A program made the translations under genes and the position numbers. A stretch of 55,448 nucleotides of DNA from a virus: the IMG/VR virus record IMGVR_UViG_3300027747_000926, positions 1-55,448 of that record. One strand, written 5' to 3'. Positions 3,101 through 41,737 of this stretch are shown one piece after another (within the stretch, counting starts at the first letter, position 1; the number at the start of each line of letters is the position of its first letter). The notes under the pieces were generated by a model that saw nothing but the letters and a program-made list of their open reading frames with translations, ran no database searches and was not told the origin of the DNA.

Positions 3101-6100
3101 CTAGTTTACGTAGGGCAAACTCCATGACTTCATTCTTATCTGAAGGGGTAAGGTTATCCATTACCTCAGCTTTAAAGTCAGGTCTGATATTCATAATATC
3201 CAGAACATCTTGCTTCCAGGCGGCAACTGGATCTGAGAATAGATCGGTAATAGTTGAACGCATAGGCTCAGGCAATAAGTTTGGATTCTTCATCTCATTC
3301 AATGTGTAATGCACAAAGAGAGAGTTCGGGAATACATCCTCGTAGCTAGTAAAGACCTCAGATTCTTCTGTGCTATTGGCTAGACGATTGAGATAGTTCT
3401 CACGGTTCTTTTTCCAACCAGCATAAAAGGTCTTCTCAGATTCAGTCAGCGTATTTTCAAACTGAGCCAGTTGCGCTGGAGTATTAGCCAAGTCATTAAG
3501 CGTGGAGTCCAAAGACTTCATCCACTGTTCTCTAGCTAATGCAGTATCACCTTTGCTGATATAGTCAGCCAGCCTAAAGTTCACAGCTAAGCGGCCAGAT
3601 AAATCAATCTGAGTTTTAGTAACCTCAATACCCTTACGTCTTAAGGCATCCATGAGATACATATATCCAATACGCTCTTGGGCTACCTGCTTAAGGGCTT
3701 CCTCCATGTTTAATTCACCCTTGCTAATAGCATCAGCTAGTTGAAGAGCGGCTACTTGTCTGTCATTCTCAAGGTCAAGACCACCTTGGGTAGCATCATT
3801 ACCCTCTGGCAATTCAGTTGCATCACCCTTCTCAATGGTTGGCTCTGAGATATAAGTAGTGTCATCAGCCAATTGTTCTTTAGTCAGATTGATTAACTCA
3901 TCTTGCTGGGCTTTTAGGAAATCCTCTACCGATCCTACTGTTGCATCAATCTCTGAGTCTTGTGCGCCATTGGACTTCATCTCATTACGAACGGCCTCTA
4001 ATTCAGCAAGCTTTTCGGATACCTGAGAATCCATCCTACTCTTGATTTCTTCTACTTTCTTCTTGGCTTCAGCACTTTGAGCAGCAGTCTTATTCTCTTT
4101 TCTTTTTAACTCAGCCGAAGCATCAACCCCCATAGCGCCTGATCGCGCCAGATTGCCCATAACACCACCAGTATCATCAGCAAACATACCAGTCTCTGAT
4201 TTAAATGGCTTCTTGAAAGCGGCTTGTTTGTCTGCATCTGCTTTTTTTTGTCTATCAAACTCATCGTTTATCTTTTGTTGTTTAGCGCTTACTGGAGTAG
4301 GTGAAACTTTCTCAACTGGCTTAGCCTTAGGTTTATTTTGTTTGACTGCTATGTCTAAACTATCCTGACCTTTGCCAGCCTTGCGTAATTGAAGATCGCC
4401 AAGCTTGCCAACGGACTGCATCATCGTGCCACCCTTAGTGGTGATAAATGATTGCGCTCCATCAATGGCGCCCTTAGCATTCTTAAAGGTGTACCAAGAA
4501 TCCTTGCCCTTAGCTGTAGTAGAGAATACTTTCCCAACTACTTCCCCAGCCTTATTCACTAGGCTGTAAGCAAGGGTAGCCTTAGCTCCAAATCCAAGAC
4601 CTTTTTTATCGGTAGCCTTGTCAATAATGACAGCTGCCTTGGTATCTGAGAATGGCTCTGCGGCAAACTTCTTCTGATTGTCAACGGCTCTTTGCTTGGC
4701 CTCTTTAGCCATAGATTCGCTTTGCTTAACATCAGGAGCAACATCTTTTGGCGCTGGGTTGGTGCTGCCAACATATACGTTAGGGTTGCCTGACTTACCA
4801 AGGACATCAGTTTCTTTGCGATTAGTTGGCTCTGAGTTCTCTCTTGGGTCATAGCCATACTGAATTGATTTTGTATTACCATCAGCATCAGTAACATTTT
4901 TGTTACCTTGCAAGGTGCTGGCAATCTCCTCATCAGTTAATCCATAGCCACGAAGGTCTTCAGCATATCCCTTTAAGGTATTAGATATGTCATTGAGTGG
5001 AAGTCCTGAGATTGATTGTGCCTTCTCCTGAAACAGCGAAATGTATTCAGACTTTTGCTCTGGAGTGATACCAGTAGATTGTTGCTTTACCGCGGGGGAA
5101 TGCTTAACCTCAGGTTGGTTATTGGAAACTTCTTGTTTTGGCGTAATAACTTTAATGCTAAGGCCATCAATCACTTCTTGTATTGCGGCAAAATCCTCAG
5201 GCGTTGAAGCCTCTCTTCTTGTGGCTTTGGGTGATGGGTTCTGAACTGTGGGAGGCTGGCTATTAATACGTGTCTCAGCCTGAGATAACTGCTCTAAGTT
5301 ACTAGCCTGTGGTGGGATATTGATCTGCTCAGATGGGGCTTGAACTACTGCCTCTGGTTTCTTAGTCTCTAGGTTCTTGCTGGTGAGTTTACCTTCGGCT
5401 ATTAACTGTTCTTCAACAGCCATATCTTTAGCTAGGCGAATCTGCTCTTCAATAGGAACTGGGTTCTTTGGGGGATTGCTAATATCAACAGTAGATGGCG
5501 CTTGATCTCTGGACTTGGTGCGCTCATAGAACTGGCCTAGGCGCTCTTGGAATTGTCCAGCAATAGTCGGGCTTACGTTAATAATCTTCTCGCCCTGTGA
5601 TACCAATGATTGGTTCTTGGAGGCAGACTCTAGGTCTAACTTCATACCAGTCTTGGTAACGTAGTTCTGAATCTGAGCTTTGGTGGAGTCATCTGACCTG
5701 GCATACATAGCCGCCAAGAAAGCAGAACCTTCTTTGACTTTTTGAATACCAAAGAACTCTTGATCTGTCATGCCAAAACTTGGTGTATCGGTAGGCTTGG
5801 CATCTTCTAATTGAGTAGTGTCAGACGGTGCTTTTGGAGGGATGGTTTCTTTAGGTTTCTTGATAGCGCTAGAGCCAGTAGCTAATTCAACTGGGGCAAA
5901 CGCGGCCTCACCTAACATCTCAGCAATTAACTCACCACGACCAGCGGGATCACCGACTGCTTCGCCAGCTTGGTATGCACCTAATGCACCACCAGTACCT
6001 TGAACACCAGCTTGGAATACGGCATTACCTACATTAGAGCCAACAGGATACTTACCTGCAACTTTAGCCAAAGGGTTGACACCCATAAATAAGCCTGCGA

Positions 6101-9161: not shown

Positions 9162-9584
9162 TTACTTAGCTTGTAAAATAAAGCGGCACTCATCTTTAAA
9201 CATTCGATAGATGATCACATCACCGCCATCTCGAGCTGCGCTTGCAAGAACTGCCTCAGGTGTAAACCCAAGGTGTTCATCGAAACGTCTAGCCTCGGCA
9301 TTGCTTACTTCAACCCATCCTGATACACGTTGACAGTTGAGTTGAATAAATGGATAGGAAAAACAAGCCCTCAGAAACATTCTGTTAAGCCAAGTCTTTC
9401 CTGGTTTTGCTGCTACATGCATCCAGATATTGGAGCCGTTAAAGCCTTCATATAAAACACCTGCGATGATCTCACCATCTTTGACAAGACCAATTCCTTG
9501 CTGACACTCTGATCTAGGCACTGGCATGAACCCAGTTACAAAGTCATAGACTGGTTGTGCCTCTAAGATCAGCTGTGTTGTCAT
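9162..9584 (-). CDS. GNAT-like protein (T7 gp13-like position)
   Basis: 140 residues. The order of elements fits a degenerate GNAT acetyltransferase fold: a small beta region (IGLVKDGEIIAGVLYEGFNG), a helix with a run of large residues, then VSGWVEVSNAEARRFDEHLG and a closing IIYRMF strand. The acyl-CoA pyrophosphate loop is not clear, so catalysis is uncertain. Phage internal protein genes near the giant ejection protein often carry this fold (T7 gp13 type). Its ATG overlaps the upstream stop (ATGA). Confidence 0.68.
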   Translation of the reverse strand: MTTQLILEAQPVYDFVTGFMPVPRSECQQGIGLVKDGEIIAGVLYEGFNGSNIWMHVAAKPGKTWLNRMFLRACFSYPFIQLNCQRVSGWVEVSNAEARRFDEHLGFTPEAVLASAARDGGDVIIYRMFKDECRFILQAK

Positions 9585-36199: not shown

Positions 36200-36441
36200 T
36201 GCATCTTATCGAACATAAAGCAGTAGCCTGTTACCTATCTGACTGGAATCCAAAAGCTAGTTACGACCAGATCATTGATGCTTTGAGATCTAGCCCTCGT
36301 GAACATGGCTGGATTGATGCGCATGACATCAGCGTTTGGTATCCATTTGAGAACGAGTTCTTAGAAAAGGTAGCGGACTACATCGAGCAAGAGTTTTCAT
36401 CTCTTACTGTAATTTTTAACCATTTAAAGGAGCAGTCATGA
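36199..36441 (+). CDS. Early small acidic protein
   Basis: 80 residues: HLIEHKAVACYLSDWNPKAS then YDQIIDALRSSPREHGWIDA, DISVWYPFENEFLEKVADYI. Helical domain with conserved-looking Trp and aromatic residues. AAGGAG lies upstream, inside the previous gene. No family recognised. ATGA junction with the next gene. Confidence 0.7.
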   Translation: MHLIEHKAVACYLSDWNPKASYDQIIDALRSSPREHGWIDAHDISVWYPFENEFLEKVADYIEQEFSSLTVIFNHLKEQS

Positions 36442-36764
36442 ATCTATCTCAATTTACAGGTACTGAACAATGGTATCGCCATCCCTTTAGTAAGGTTACA
36501 TATACCGATGGGGTTAAGTACTTTGCTGATCAAGCGGGCGCCTATTGGTTTCTAGATATTGCTGTTTGCCTGCCAATGGAATTCCCTAACGAAAAGTTCT
36601 ACTCTGTTTGCCTTGATGTATCAGATGGTAAAGCTAAGCTCGTTGTCGATGATGGCAACGATAACGTACTCATGAATAAGGACATTGACTTTACTGACTG
36701 TCCCAATGGCGAGTACCGTTTCTTTCTAACCAATGATGTTTTGATGCTTACTTCGGAGTACTAA
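36438..36764 (+). CDS. DUF6876-like protein
   Basis: 108 residues. FTGTEQWYRHPFSKVTYTDG followed by VKYFADQAGAYWFLDIAVCL is the pattern I associate with DUF6876, found in phages, plasmids and integrative elements. A beta-rich C-terminus (DGKAKLVVDDGNDNVL) completes it. No known function. Embedded in a string of small coupled genes. Confidence 0.78.
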   Translation: MNLSQFTGTEQWYRHPFSKVTYTDGVKYFADQAGAYWFLDIAVCLPMEFPNEKFYSVCLDVSDGKAKLVVDDGNDNVLMNKDIDFTDCPNGEYRFFLTNDVLMLTSEY

Positions 36765-37184: not shown

Positions 37185-37517
37185 ATGAAACCTAAATTTA
37201 TTGCAGATTTAGAAACCCGCATTAATGAATCCATGAATAGCATTCGTGCTATCAAAGGAGAAAAGTTTGCGGCTGCTACCCACTGCTTATTTCGTGGAAC
37301 CCACGCCACATCCAACCTGAATCTCCTGCTAAGCCATTCTGACATTGATGCATCTATCCGTGCCAAGATGACTGACCAGTTGACCAGCTGCATGTCTACT
37401 CATATGAATCTGATCGTTAACCTTGGCGAGTTAAATGATGACGATGTTCTTGAGATGATGAACTGGGTTGATGTCCTACATAAACATGTTCATACCGCAA
37501 TGGAGGAGGCATTATGA
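37185..37517 (+). CDS. Early helical protein
   Basis: 110 residues, all helical: KPKFIADLETRINESMNSIR, then LLLSHSDIDASIRAKMTDQL and LNDDDVLEMMNWVDVLHKHV. Several Met/His-rich helices, no catalytic motif. AAGGACAACC upstream; ATGA overlap with the next gene. Confidence 0.7.
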   Translation: MKPKFIADLETRINESMNSIRAIKGEKFAAATHCLFRGTHATSNLNLLLSHSDIDASIRAKMTDQLTSCMSTHMNLIVNLGELNDDDVLEMMNWVDVLHKHVHTAMEEAL

Positions 37518-37834
37518 GTTGGCATAACGCTTTCGAACCCTGGGAAATTTATGAATTTACCTCTGAAGTAAATGAATTTATCAGATCATTTGGGTTTAAC
37601 ACCGTTGTTGACGATGACGGTGACTGTTCTTGGATTGCCTACATTGAAGATGAGAATGGCGATGACATCTACGACAGAGATAACGGTAGTGAATGGACAG
37701 AAATTGACCGGTATTTACCTGATGATTTGCTGGCCCTGCTAAACGCTGTTCAAGACTGGAGTAACCCAGCTAGTCGTATCTTTAAGAAACGAAAAACCGT
37801 AGTAGGTGCTATGGCTATCCTTCCCCTGCCTTAA
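37514..37834 (+). CDS. Early acidic protein
   Basis: 106 residues with a strongly acidic middle (VVDDDGDCSWIAYIEDENGD then DIYDRDNGSEWTEIDRYLPD) and a basic end (IFKKRKTVVGAMA). The acidic surface could mimic DNA or bind a basic partner. Last gene before the amidoligase leader. Confidence 0.7.
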   Translation: MSWHNAFEPWEIYEFTSEVNEFIRSFGFNTVVDDDGDCSWIAYIEDENGDDIYDRDNGSEWTEIDRYLPDDLLALLNAVQDWSNPASRIFKKRKTVVGAMAILPLP

Positions 37835-38003
37835 TCATGTCCATATATATCAGTAATGGTGATACATGTGCATAGTTAACGCTATTTTATTAGTAATAGT
37901 AACACAGTTGTTTGCTTTTAATAGTCATCAACCAACGTCTATCGCCTCTCTTTCCTTTAGGAAAGGCGATTGACTTTTCTTTTTCTCAACCTCAGGAGGT
38001 TTT
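37835..38003 (+). promoter_or_regulatory. Amidoligase-cassette leader
   Basis: 169 bases without a gene. TATCAG at 37848-37853 is followed by GTTAACGCTATTTTATTAG, a partial resemblance to the TATCAGTAGCGTTAATA element. Then comes the bulged hairpin at 37941-37970 and a strong SD (AGGAGGTTTT). I do not see a good sigma-70 promoter. Confidence 0.5.
37941..37970 (+). promoter_or_regulatory. Leader hairpin 3 (5' pyrimidine bulge)
   Basis: Outer stem ATCGCC/GGCGAT, 5' bulge TCTC, inner stem TTTCC/GGAAA, loop TTTA, then TGACTTTTCTTTTTC. Ends 33 bases before the amidoligase ATG. Confidence 0.68.
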
Positions 38004-39503
38004 ATGTCCAGTAAATTGTATTTTTATGCAAGAAAACGGGTGTATCGAGATGATATGGGTGGCAATGAGTTCGTCCGTATCCTCGTAAAGCGTGTCCTTA
38101 AATCAGTAGCTCGGTCTACTGGCGGTAGGATTCACACCAACCGTTGGCTCAGGTTAATCAATGAACTAGCAGCTGCTCACCCAACAGATGGTGAAGGTCA
38201 GAAGTTTATGGAAAACCTGACAGCCTATGTCATGTCATTTAAAAAGACTCATCCATTAACAGTGGTTCGGATGGCCTTGATGCTTGACATTATTAAAGGT
38301 CGTGTATTTACCCGTGAAAATGATTCGTTTGATTACGGCGCATTACTTCAGTCTCACTTAACCTTGTTTGAAACAGTCAATGATGTATCTTGGATTGATT
38401 CTGTTGGCGTAAAAATGGGCATAGATAGAGCTGGTTGCGGTCACTTTGCTATGGTAACTAACACGTTGTTTGGCGATGATGACAGCGTTACTGCTAGATC
38501 TACTGTATGTTCGCATTGTACAAACCAATTAATAGATGATGGCACTCGTCAAATGGCTAGTGATAGCACGCTAATACTATCTAAGTATGCAGTATCTTAT
38601 CTAGATCCAAGCAATCATATACGTATCGCTGATCGACGCAGGGATTACCTTCGTCAGTTAGATGATGGCCGCTGGGTTCACATTGACTGGACTCCATATC
38701 GCGGCCTGGTTGCTGGCTACCACAGTAGCAAGTCTAAAGGGTTTGACGTCATTGATAGCCCTTGGTTTAGACAGAATCGCCGTGCCTTTGGTCTTGAGTT
38801 AGAAGTTCAGGTGACATCTGGCTCTGCAAACTTAGATGCAATGGCTGGCCGGGTTCATGATCTGTTTAATCCTAACGGTGCAGTTGGTGAGTACTGCTTC
38901 TTCGAGCGTGATGGTTCTATTGGTCATGGCTTTGAGATTGTTACTCAACCAGCAGGCATGGACATACACCGAGATAAGTTTGCATTGTTCTTAAACAATC
39001 CTGAAACTAAAAAAGGTATGCGTTCTCATGAAGGTGGTAGCTGTGGTTTGCACATACACGTAGGTAGACAGTACCTTACGCAAGCTCAGATCTTTAGAGT
39101 TCAATCCTTTCTCAACGATGTCAGAAACGAAGGGATTATTCGTATGATTGCCCGTCGTTATGGTGCTGGTTATTGCAGGGTTAAACCTGAGATGGCTAAG
39201 TTCACACCTTACAACAAGCAAAACGGAGATCGTTACGAGATGCTGAACATTCAGAACAGAGATACCGTTGAGTTTCGTATCTTCAGGGGTTCACTGCGTT
39301 ATGAATCTGTGATGGCAGCTCTTGAGTTCTGTAATGCGCTGCTTACTTTCTGTCAGCCAGGTGAGGTGTCATTCACCCAGTTCAATGCTGTTGGTTTTAA
39401 GACTTACATTCAGAGTCAATCAATGAAGCAAGACACTAAGTTCTTGCGTAGTTATTTACGCATGAGTGAAGACACCGACAACGAAAGGCAGGTTGCTGCA
39501 TGA
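38004..39503 (+). CDS. Amidoligase (COOH-NH2 ligase family)
   Basis: 499 residues. The C-terminal ~240 residues show amidoligase motifs in order: FGLELEVQ (262-269), ERDGSI (301-306) with GFEIVTQP (309-316), SCGLHIHVG (346-354), and RDTVEFRIFRGSL (419-431). These belong to the glutamine synthetase-like ATP-dependent COOH-NH2 ligases, which form an amide between a carboxylate and an amine. The N-terminal half is separate: helical, then a probable zinc site (CGH at 145-147, CSHC at 169-172). Substrates are unknown; peptide, peptidoglycan or nucleobase side chains are all possible. The next large gene is an amidotransferase, giving a natural ammonia-handling pair. Confidence 0.88.
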   Translation: MSSKLYFYARKRVYRDDMGGNEFVRILVKRVLKSVARSTGGRIHTNRWLRLINELAAAHPTDGEGQKFMENLTAYVMSFKKTHPLTVVRMALMLDIIKGRVFTRENDSFDYGALLQSHLTLFETVNDVSWIDSVGVKMGIDRAGCGHFAMVTNTLFGDDDSVTARSTVCSHCTNQLIDDGTRQMASDSTLILSKYAVSYLDPSNHIRIADRRRDYLRQLDDGRWVHIDWTPYRGLVAGYHSSKSKGFDVIDSPWFRQNRRAFGLELEVQVTSGSANLDAMAGRVHDLFNPNGAVGEYCFFERDGSIGHGFEIVTQPAGMDIHRDKFALFLNNPETKKGMRSHEGGSCGLHIHVGRQYLTQAQIFRVQSFLNDVRNEGIIRMIARRYGAGYCRVKPEMAKFTPYNKQNGDRYEMLNIQNRDTVEFRIFRGSLRYESVMAALEFCNALLTFCQPGEVSFTQFNAVGFKTYIQSQSMKQDTKFLRSYLRMSEDTDNERQVAA

Positions 39504-39610
39504 GTATCAGAACAGATGCAAAAGTTTGGACAAATCTCACCGAGGCTGAGGCTTCATCTCTCATCAGTTGTTTAGTGGCTAATCGTATTAGCTATGCTAT
39601 TTTAAATTAA
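39500..39610 (+). CDS. 36-residue peptide between ligase and amidotransferase
   Basis: MSIRTDAKVWTNLTEAEASS then LISCLVANRISYAILN. Its ATG overlaps the amidoligase stop (ATGA). Amphipathic with one Cys. A peptide encoded between a ligase and an amidotransferase could be a substrate or carrier, but that is speculative; it could also be a minor accessory subunit. Confidence 0.58.
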   Translation: MSIRTDAKVWTNLTEAEASSLISCLVANRISYAILN

Positions 39611-39624
39611 GAAAGGTAATAATT

Positions 39625-40656
39625 ATGTGTATATTAATTCACCATCCAGTAGGTTCTGTATTAACTGACGCTCACTTTGAGGACTTCTATGATCGTAATC
39701 CTGATGGTTTTGGCGCCATTGTTAACAACGCTCATGGTGTAAATGTCATCAAGCATGTCGGTACATTAGAAGAAGTTCAACAGTTATATCGTGACCACGT
39801 TATGGGTTTTGATGCGGTTATCCATATGCGCTGGCGTACTCACGGCGATGTCAATCTAGATAACTGCCACCCTTATGAGGTTGTTCCTGGCATGTGGATG
39901 TCTCACAATGGGATACTTAGTACGGGTAATGCAGCTGATCAAACTCGATCTGATACTTGGCATTACATTCAGAACTATCTGCGACCTTTGCTGCTAGAAA
40001 ATCCAGAGCTTATTCATATACCAGCATTTCAGGCTTATGTTGGTAGCCATATTGGTTACAACAATAAGTTTGGCTTTATGACAGAGGATGGTCGTAGCGT
40101 CATCATCAATCGCAGTGCTGGTATCGAGCATGAAGGTGTGTGGTTTTCTAATACCTATGCTTGGACTCCTCATAAGTTTGGCTACAGAACAGCGTATCAG
40201 TATGGTTCATCACCTAATTATGCTACGCAAACTACGTATGCCAAGCCTACCACCCAAGCTGGTTTTGACTTTACCAAGCCAGCCAAATACCAAAAGCCTA
40301 AAGCTAAATCCAAGACAGCTAAGAAAGCTACTACCAAGAAATCTATAGCCAATGCTATAGGAAAGATCAGTGAAGATTCTTACAAGAGAATCATTCGATC
40401 TTGCTTTAATGAGATTGAGTTGGATGGATTTCACGGCGCCTTGCGCTGGTGTACTGACAATCCAATGAAAGCTATGCACTTTATCTATAACGGTATGCCT
40501 AGCGAAAATCCTCAGGAAGTTTCTGACATGGTAAATGAGACGCCTGATTTAGCTGCCGACCACATCATGGAGATCTGGGATATGTATGGCGAGGACTTAG
40601 CTGAGATGGCTGGCATTCAACAATCTTTTACAGGAGTTAATTACTATGATATTTAA
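39625..40656 (+). CDS. Class II glutamine amidotransferase-like Ntn hydrolase
   Basis: 343 residues. Cys2 follows the initiator Met (MCILIHH), as required for the N-terminal nucleophile. NPDGFG (25-30), MRWRTHG (68-74), NCHPYE (80-85) and SHNGIL (93-98) match GATase class II active-site and glutamine-binding segments. It would release ammonia from glutamine or act as an amide hydrolase/transferase. A Lys-rich linker (about 220-245) leads to a C-terminal helical domain of ~100 residues. No synthase domain is fused, so the partner is probably the amidoligase upstream. AAAGG lies nine bases before the ATG. Confidence 0.87.
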   Translation: MCILIHHPVGSVLTDAHFEDFYDRNPDGFGAIVNNAHGVNVIKHVGTLEEVQQLYRDHVMGFDAVIHMRWRTHGDVNLDNCHPYEVVPGMWMSHNGILSTGNAADQTRSDTWHYIQNYLRPLLLENPELIHIPAFQAYVGSHIGYNNKFGFMTEDGRSVIINRSAGIEHEGVWFSNTYAWTPHKFGYRTAYQYGSSPNYATQTTYAKPTTQAGFDFTKPAKYQKPKAKSKTAKKATTKKSIANAIGKISEDSYKRIIRSCFNEIELDGFHGALRWCTDNPMKAMHFIYNGMPSENPQEVSDMVNETPDLAADHIMEIWDMYGEDLAEMAGIQQSFTGVNYYDI

Positions 40657-40975
40657 TCAGAGAATCAATCGTACCTTTGCTGAATTTAACGCAAACGACT
40701 ACGACTTTAATGAGTTCAAGCGTGCCTTGAATCTTTCAAGGTCAGGCACTGACATTACTCTGGGCTATTCTGACAAGGTATTTTTTCAAATACCAGACAG
40801 TGTATTTAGATGTCAGACAGATGATCAGCAAAGGGTACTTGGCATTTCAACCAGTAGCTTTATGAAGTTTGCTATGTATGCATACCTTCAAGAGCTGGGT
40901 AAGGTCAATGACTTTATGAACTATGCCAAGCGTCATGGCTACTCGGTTCGCAATACTGCAAGTAGTTTCTACTAA
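40646..40975 (+). CDS. Cassette protein, unknown
   Basis: 109 residues: NQRINRTFAEFNANDYDFNE then FKRALNLSRSGTDITLGYSD and a helical C-terminus (YLQELGKVNDFMNYAKRHGY). Overlaps the amidotransferase end by 11 bases with a good SD (CAGGAG). Small mixed alpha/beta protein that may be an accessory subunit of the cassette. Confidence 0.7.
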   Translation: MIFNQRINRTFAEFNANDYDFNEFKRALNLSRSGTDITLGYSDKVFFQIPDSVFRCQTDDQQRVLGISTSSFMKFAMYAYLQELGKVNDFMNYAKRHGYSVRNTASSFY

Positions 40976-41031
40976 ACCAATGGGGTTGGTATGCCTATGC
41001 GTATCAGCCCCGCTAATAAAGGAGTTGTTAT

Positions 41032-41202
41032 ATGTCTAAGTATAAATATTACCTCATAGAAAAAACCGTCTTACACGTAACGGTGGAAGCCAACGATCGT
41101 GATGAGGCAGATGAAAAGGTCGAAGGTATCTTGGAAGATGATCCCGACTGGGGTATGGGTGGCATGGAAGTTACCTATGAATTTGCGGGGGAGGAATCAT
41201 GA
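41032..41202 (+). CDS. Small acidic cassette protein
   Basis: 56 residues: MSKYKYYLIEKTVLHVTVEA, then NDRDEADEKVEGILEDDPDW. A short beta hairpin and one acidic helix in the style of small phage proteins with a (beta)VEAxDxDEAxE core. AAAGGAG upstream; ATGA overlap downstream. TATCAG lies at 41002-41007 in its leader. Confidence 0.68.
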   Translation: MSKYKYYLIEKTVLHVTVEANDRDEADEKVEGILEDDPDWGMGGMEVTYEFAGEES

Positions 41203-41465
41203 ACGCAATCGAAGATCATGTTGAAGTATTCCAACGTAGGAAAGGTATGAAGGTTTACCTTGACACCGTTGATAATGGAACTCATCAGTATATTCACCTA
41301 TGCTTTGATGATGACCTTAACGAAACCTGTGGTGGCTATGTTTCAATCAAGCTTGATGACGATGGAGTTATCGTGGATATCATTAATGAAGGGGATGTTC
41401 TTAGTTCATCTTGGGTATCATATGATGAATTACTACCGCCATCCATGAGAAAGGAGTCTGTATGA
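41199..41465 (+). CDS. Small acidic cassette protein
   Basis: 88 residues, beta-rich and acidic: KVYLDTVDNGTHQYIHLCFD, then VSIKLDDDGVIVDIINEGDV. Overlaps both neighbours by ATGA. No family recognised; its coupling to the cassette suggests shared expression. Confidence 0.68.
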   Translation: MNAIEDHVEVFQRRKGMKVYLDTVDNGTHQYIHLCFDDDLNETCGGYVSIKLDDDGVIVDIINEGDVLSSSWVSYDELLPPSMRKESV

Positions 41466-41737
41466 AATTTCTATTTATTCTTTTTGCATTGATCAGTCTG
41501 CAAGTTAACGCTAAAGCTATTGGAGAACTTCCCAATAACTCGGGTGGCAAGATCATATTTACTGATGATGTATGTCAGTACCACCCCGCTGCGAGAAGGG
41601 TTTATTCTTATAGCGGGACTGGTAATACTATGGAAGGATGCTGGTTTATCGAAGATGAAACAGTAGTTGTTCGCTACGAAGATATCAAGCAACCATATCG
41701 ATACCCTTTAAATAAAGTATTAACCCCATCTAAGTAA
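41462..41737 (+). CDS. Secreted small protein
   Basis: 91 residues. Residues 1-18 (MKFLFILFALISLQVNAKA) form a Sec signal peptide with a cleavage site near VNA-KA. The mature part is about 70 residues with two cysteines (likely one disulfide) and GGKIIFTDDVCQ / YSYSGTGNTMEGCWFIED, a pattern found in small exported phage and prophage proteins. It would act in the periplasm or envelope. Last gene of the rightward cassette. Confidence 0.78.
   Translation: MKFLFILFALISLQVNAKAIGELPNNSGGKIIFTDDVCQYHPAARRVYSYSGTGNTMEGCWFIEDETVVVRYEDIKQPYRYPLNKVLTPSK

What the first reader, a model, noticed from the sequence alone, without database searches (positions are those of the whole stretch)
37835..41737. 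Amidoligase plus class II glutamine amidotransferase cassette in a phage
A 499-residue amidoligase is followed, after a 36-residue coupled ORF, by a free-standing Cys2 glutamine amidotransferase-like enzyme and then three small proteins and one with a signal peptide. The pairing of COOH-NH2 ligases with GATase-II domains is known from comparative genomics of amidoligases (peptide tagging and cell-wall chemistry), but products in phages are uncharacterised. This cassette has its own leader hairpin and strong SD. It may add amides to a peptide, peptidoglycan precursor or DNA base, and the secreted partner suggests an envelope target. The extra N-terminal zinc site in the ligase is also unusual.
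Basis: partly seen in the sequence, partly recalled or inferred. Interest (0 to 1): 0.78.

Follow-up and report, generated by a model that had tools for sequence, protein, structure and literature searches.

The report
Phage glutamine-fed amide-ligase gene pair
A bacterial virus carries a two-gene enzyme pair that probably uses glutamine and ATP to put an amide on some carboxylic acid; the pair is widespread and already described in phages, but here the gene just before it, and several unrelated small genes in sister phages, end in the same short peptide tail, which may point to what the enzyme recognises.

Summary
A 499-aa amidoligase (PF12224, above its curated cut-off) is followed by a class-II glutamine amidotransferase (GAT) with Cys2 and the glutamine-binding residues intact. 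The pairing is not chance: 167 adjacent, same-strand, same-order pairs in 166 related loci. Most unpaired genes sit at contig ends. The pair is known: phage amidoligase-GAT genes are reported from OM43, LUZ24-like and RIO-1-like phages, usually assigned to cell-wall modification.

The downstream small genes and the signal-peptide gene do not travel with the pair, so the 'secreted partner' is no evidence for an envelope target. The N-terminal cysteine site is a family feature, not unusual. No DNA-base-modification pathway was found.

What is new lies upstream. The gene just before the ligase (37514-37834) ends in a tail, roughly [VI/T]G-x(2-4)-[KIR]-[LIV]P[LF]P. In this phage lineage that tail ends the gene before the ligase in 18 contigs, on fast-diverging or unrelated bodies, and other unrelated small proteins carry it too (19 sense hits; shuffles 0.38). 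The tail's function is unknown; I suggest docking to the ligase's fast-evolving N-terminal region.

The parts
37514..37834 (+). 106-aa protein encoded just upstream of the ligase; ends in the shared C-terminal tail (KTVVGAMAILPLP*)
   Evidence: Tail found before the ligase in 18 lineage contigs on divergent or unrelated bodies
37835..38003 (+). Leader with terminator-like hairpin (37941-37970) and a hydrophobic 35-aa micro-ORF (37866-37973)
   Evidence: Fold z -2.7; block and peptide shared with L089/L103, peptide also with L098; absent in L090
38004..39503 (+). Amidoligase (PF12224), glutamine-synthetase-like catalytic domain about 250-485, variable N-terminal region with conserved C-x-H...C-x2-C
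39500..39610 (+). 36-aa ORF in ATGA overlap with the ligase; only in the nearest relatives
   Evidence: 60 % identity over 30 aa in L089/L103
39625..40656 (+). Class-II glutamine amidotransferase with catalytic Cys2; C-terminal region after about residue 190 poorly predicted

Best explanation
The two genes encode one glutamine-dependent amide-forming enzyme made of two proteins. Inferred mechanism: the GAT uses Cys2 (exposed after Met removal) to hydrolyse glutamine and release ammonia; the glutamine-synthetase-like ligase activates a carboxylate with ATP as an acyl phosphate, and the ammonia (or another amine) attacks it to give an amide. Shown here by computation: both folds, intact active-site residues, near-obligate pairing in fixed order. 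Inferred: the reaction, transfer of ammonia between the proteins, and the substrate. Most likely substrates are a peptidoglycan stem peptide or precursor (about 0.35), as proposed for phiEco32/RIO-1-type cassettes, or a protein or peptide carboxylate (about 0.3). In this lineage the upstream tail-bearing small protein is also conserved; that its tail docks on the ligase is a suggestion, not shown.
For: PF12224 above cut-off; predicted fold matches glutamine synthetase, Dop and PafA. GAT matches GlmS by sequence and fold; C2, R69, T72, G74, H94-N95-G96 and D110 invariant in 34 relatives. Ligase G263, E265, E267, D303-G304-S305, E311, G348, H350, R385, N415, E423 and R425 invariant in 43. 167 adjacent pairs in 166 loci, always ligase first, found from either gene.
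Against: No biochemistry here or in the papers read. The GAT is below Pfam's curated cut-off. The ligase model is only moderately confident (pLDDT 68.9) and TM-scores are low. An interface or ammonia tunnel could not be tested. At least three ligases lack a detected GAT away from contig ends (L007, L134, L165).
Confidence: 0.72

Rival explanations
1. Envelope modification: the pair amidates, or ligates an amine to, peptidoglycan stem peptides or precursors, blocking superinfection or adjusting the wall for the phage's own lysis enzymes. This is the substrate-specific version of the best explanation.
For: Published proposal for related phage gene sets (PMC5498523; PMC11945000; PMC10580990). The window encodes an M15-type peptidase, a candidate lysis enzyme acting on wall peptides.
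Against: The other enzymes of the published cassette are absent from the window.
Confidence: 0.35
2. Protein or peptide modification: the ligase amidates or conjugates a protein carboxylate, with tail-bearing small proteins as substrates or adaptors.
For: Shared tail on at least five kinds of small protein, always on the gene before the ligase in 18 contigs. Ligase region 1-235 evolves much faster than the catalytic domain. Fold kinship to PafA/Dop.
Against: Distant pairs show no such tail. The tail has no conserved carboxylate residue and its distance from the C-terminus varies. No lineage member without the pair exists to test the link.
Confidence: 0.3
3. Metabolic gene: the pair supplies nitrogen compounds or a small-molecule amide during infection, as claimed for Phage-ZRK32.
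For: Growth effects attributed to phage genes including amidoligase and GAT (PMC10945688).
Against: That study did not isolate the effect of these genes in the passages read; the GAT consumes rather than makes glutamine (own knowledge).
Confidence: 0.12
4. DNA-base modification: the pair amidates a hypermodified base.
For: Only the general precedent of amide-bearing phage bases (own knowledge).
Against: No thymidylate-synthase-like, base-kinase, queuosine-type or similar enzyme among the Pfam families of 53 window proteins.
Confidence: 0.03

Closest known systems
Amidoligase (PF12224) + GATase genes of OM43 phages MEP401/MEP402 (PMC10580990)
   Same: Adjacent ligase then GAT in the early region; homologous by sequence (ligase about 30 %, GAT about 30 %)
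   Different: Different phage family; no tail-bearing upstream gene seen
Pair in Caudoviricetes sp. ctgrD200 (MW202733)
   Same: Closest annotated phage: ligase 38.6 % over 52 % of the query, GAT 38.1 % over 53 %, adjacent, near an integrase
   Different: N-terminal region of the ligase unrelated by simple alignment; no shared tail found
phiEco32/RIO-1/LUZ24-type peptidoglycan modification cassette
   Same: Amidoligase and class-II GAT in podoviruses (PMC5498523, PMC3890496)
   Different: Those sets also have ATP-grasp, gamma-glutamyl cyclotransferase and a second ligase (PF14395); none found in the window
Marvin-type mycobacteriophage gp105/gp106
   Same: Ligase homologue followed by GAT homologue
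   Different: Far diverged; ligase annotated there as a GAT-domain protein
Pupylation enzymes PafA/Dop
   Same: Glutamine-synthetase-like fold
   Different: No sequence match to PDB ligases; no Pup-like conserved terminus; an extra GAT is present
MurT/GatD
   Same: Works-like analogy: ligase plus separate glutaminase that amidates peptidoglycan (PMC3267633)
   Different: Mur-ligase and class-I GAT folds, unrelated (own knowledge; folds found here are GS-like and class II)

Membership tests
Amidoligase_2 (PF12224) | Profile match above the curated cut-off | tested here: met
   29.3 vs 22 bits
Amidoligase_2 (PF12224) | Glutamine-synthetase-like fold with conserved metal/ATP residues | tested here: met
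   Fold search; invariant E265, E267, D303, E311, H350, R425. Assignment of residues to metal or ATP is inferred.
Amidoligase_2 (PF12224) | ATP-dependent amide bond formation | not testable with these tools
   Needs biochemistry
Class-II glutamine amidotransferase | N-terminal catalytic Cys and glutamine-binding residues | tested here: met
   C2, R69, T72, G74, N95, G96, D110 invariant in 34 relatives; aligned with GlmS
Class-II glutamine amidotransferase | Curated Pfam cut-off (GATase_4) | tested here: not met
   15.4 vs 23 bits; fold and PDB sequence matches nevertheless clear. Read as a divergent member.
phiEco32/RIO-1-type peptidoglycan modification cassette | Amidoligase plus GAT | tested here: met
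phiEco32/RIO-1-type peptidoglycan modification cassette | ATP-grasp enzyme, gamma-glutamyl cyclotransferase and second ligase (PF14395) | tested here: not met
   None among Pfam families of 53 window proteins. Not filed as a member.
phiEco32/RIO-1-type peptidoglycan modification cassette | Acts on peptidoglycan | not testable with these tools
   Needs muropeptide analysis; unproven in the published sets as far as read
Pupylation-type tagging | Small tag protein with a conserved terminal residue that is ligated | tested here: not met
   The tail is conserved but what follows it varies in length and sequence

The most novel reading that the evidence does not exclude
The shared C-terminal tail is a recognition tag: unrelated small phage proteins carrying [VI/T]G-x(2-4)-[KIR]-[LIV]P[LF]P are brought by it to the amidoligase-GAT enzyme (probably to the ligase's N-terminal region), which modifies them or uses them as adaptors to reach a host target. 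This would be a tail-guided phage protein-amidation system.
Probability: 0.17. Interest if true: 0.82.

Novelty: new variant of a known kind. Interest (0 to 1): 0.52.

Why it matters
Amidoligase-GAT pairs recur in very diverse phages, and the papers read here still only guess at their substrate. This lineage offers a minimal two-enzyme version without the usual extra genes, plus a candidate recognition peptide that can be tested for binding directly. Whether or not the tail binds the ligase, a short C-terminal module that moves between unrelated phage proteins needs an explanation.

Tried and rejected
Distant blastn of the cassette DNA against phages: no match. Single-protein ligase scan of viral contigs: none confirmed; solved with an alignment query. 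Small downstream genes as cassette members: rejected. DNA-base modification: rejected for lack of partner enzymes. Rfam families in the cassette: none. Tail as a DNA-level element (promoter, recombination site): disfavoured, because identical residues mostly use different codons (327 synonymous vs 92 identical codon pairs) and several tailed genes are not next to the ligase. The two 'VGLHVVPFPY' hits were discarded as ORFs antisense to the primase gene. Unguided search for shared tails in other ligase groups: no convincing case. Literature search for a shared tail: nothing. The 2009 amidoligase paper and the Marvin paper are not held; their claims are cited only through later papers. One fetch from genomes failed on region length.

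Full report
WHAT IS THERE. The window is a virus record of 55,448 bases with podovirus features: head-tail adaptor/portal, internal virion protein and terminase, and an integrase, a CI-like repressor and a primase-helicase, so probably a temperate podovirus. Its portal is distantly related to those of Rhizobium, Roseobacter and Sinorhizobium phages (26-35 %).

THE PAIR. The ligase passes PF12224 (29.3 vs 22 bits) and matches a PHROG amidoligase family. No PDB protein matches convincingly by sequence, but the model, whose catalytic part is the best predicted region, retrieves glutamine synthetases, a GCS2-type ligase, Dop and PafA (best E 1.5e-4, low TM-scores). The GAT is below Pfam's cut-off, yet it matches GlmS by sequence over RWRTHG and HNG and GlmS, PurF and EgtC by fold. 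Cys2, R69, T72, G74, H94-N95-G96 and D110 are invariant in 34 non-redundant relatives, and H73 is kept in 31. From established knowledge of GlmS, these correspond to its nucleophile and glutamine-binding residues, which favours a working glutaminase.

CONSERVATION OF THE PAIR. Searching with the GAT, with the ligase profile, and in bacterial genomes gave 167 adjacent same-strand ligase-then-GAT pairs in 166 loci; about a dozen loci repeat a contig, leaving roughly 150 contigs. Most exceptions lie at contig ends; L007, L134, L165 and L005 do not. Some phages carry two pairs: L133 and Acinetobacter phage vB_AciJM_313. The bacterial-genome hits are mostly Burkholderiales, and neighbours there include integrase, terminase and phage DNA polymerase families, so at least some are prophages.

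WHAT IS NOT PART OF IT. In 178 loci, the 109-aa gene after the GAT is found only in the two nearest relatives, the 56- and 88-aa genes nowhere, and the signal-peptide gene once (L091, 31 %), upstream of the pair. The envelope argument from the 'secreted partner' falls. The 36-aa ORF is probably real in the nearest relatives (60 % identity, same ATGA overlap) but was not found elsewhere. The Cys/His site of the ligase is a family feature, not an oddity.

THE LEADER. The 169-nt leader holds a terminator-like hairpin and a hydrophobic 35-aa micro-ORF whose stop codon lies in the 3' arm of the hairpin. L089/L103 share the block and the start of the peptide (59 % over 22 aa), and L098 a similar peptide (67 % over 18 aa). 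It could be an attenuator or a small membrane peptide; neither was tested. L090 lacks it.

THE TAIL (new). Comparing the genes just before the ligase showed that in this lineage they end in the same short tail: window KTVVGAMAILPLP*, L090 SVGKFTKLPLPKD..., L093 AVGKYTILPFPKD..., L101 SVGSYTKIPFPKV..., L098 DVTGSAAALPLP*, L100 DITGQSTRLPLP*. The window protein's homologues are only 19-31 % identical to it. In L098 and L100 the body looks different; for L098 the similarity to proteins of other phages stops before the tail (residues 104-107 of 117). The tail also ends other small proteins in the same genomes: Api92-like proteins (PF18406) in L091 and L098, where for L098 outside matches stop by residue 156 of 200; a weakly DpnD/PcfM-like protein in L100, whose counterpart in the window (41032-41202) has no tail; and two unclassified proteins in L094 and L100.

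CONTROLS FOR THE TAIL. Across the window and 15 relative records, 3,911 ORFs gave 21 tail hits, 19 after removing two ORFs antisense to the primase gene; shuffling the last 40 residues gave 0.38 on average (maximum 2), and only 2 matches were internal in 358,098 residues. I built the motif from some of these proteins, the records are related, and some hits are orthologues, so this contrast is partly circular and the hits are not independent. Two checks reduce the worry. An unguided comparison of all C-terminal ends within each locus put the tail pairs of L098 and L091 at the top in this lineage. A scan of 2.9 million viral contigs for two narrow DNA versions of the tail gave 18 hits; all 10 that end a lineage protein lie directly before a ligase, and the other 8 are internal, very short or unassigned. 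Conserved residues mostly use different codons (327 vs 92), so selection acts on the peptide. Of 22 lineage contigs examined, 18 have the tail before the ligase, L104-L106 have a degenerate form (SSIGSLAKPNLP*), and L107 has none.

HOW THE TAIL RELATES TO THE PAIR. Within the lineage, ligase region 1-235 is far less conserved (roughly 14-58 %) than the catalytic domain (55-76 %), as expected if the N-terminal region binds fast-changing partners. But every lineage contig long enough to judge has the pair, so presence and absence cannot test the link, and more distant pairs show no shared tail. The link is a hypothesis, about 0.17.

MECHANISM AND VERDICT. Best supported is a glutamine-fed, ATP-driven amide-forming enzyme of two proteins. 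The substrate is open: peptidoglycan is the published guess for related sets, proteins are an alternative that the tail makes more plausible, and DNA is unlikely. The pair itself is already known in phages (OM43 phages, PMC10580990; tf and LUZ24-like phages, PMC3517423, PMC3890496). The reduced two-enzyme set with a conserved tail-bearing upstream protein is a new variant of that kind.

Noticed in passing
37514-37834; L091:4385-4984; L098:4551-5153 and 5500-5853; L100:4627-4950, 5427-5834, 9327-9554; L094:3681-4058: Unrelated small proteins of one phage lineage share a transferable C-terminal tail, roughly [VI/T]G-x(2-4)-[KIR]-[LIV]P[LF]P; the gene before the amidoligase nearly always has it.
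   Followed up: partly
37866-37973: Hydrophobic 35-aa micro-ORF in the ligase leader whose stop codon lies inside a terminator-like hairpin; similar peptides in L089/L103 and L098. Possible attenuator or membrane micropeptide.
   Followed up: partly
37185-37517 and 36438-36764: Two small genes upstream (110 aa and 108 aa) are kept in many lineage relatives, better than the genes downstream of the pair.
   Followed up: no
window, gene not pinned down: One window protein matches PF18909 (dATP/dGTP diphosphohydrolase, N-terminal) and others match Peptidase_M15_3, Metallophos, ERF and LPD38.
   Followed up: no
L133; PX050566.1 (L003, L004); L134; L165: Some phages carry two ligase-GAT pairs, or a second ligase without a detected GAT, hinting at more than one substrate.
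   Followed up: no
L005 (Stenotrophomonas phage StenR_269): Large amide-chemistry cluster annotated as gamma-glutamyl cyclotransferase, GAT, glutamine-synthetase-like protein, D-Ala-D-Ala-ligase-like protein, amidoligase and a second GAT within about 8 kb.
   Followed up: no
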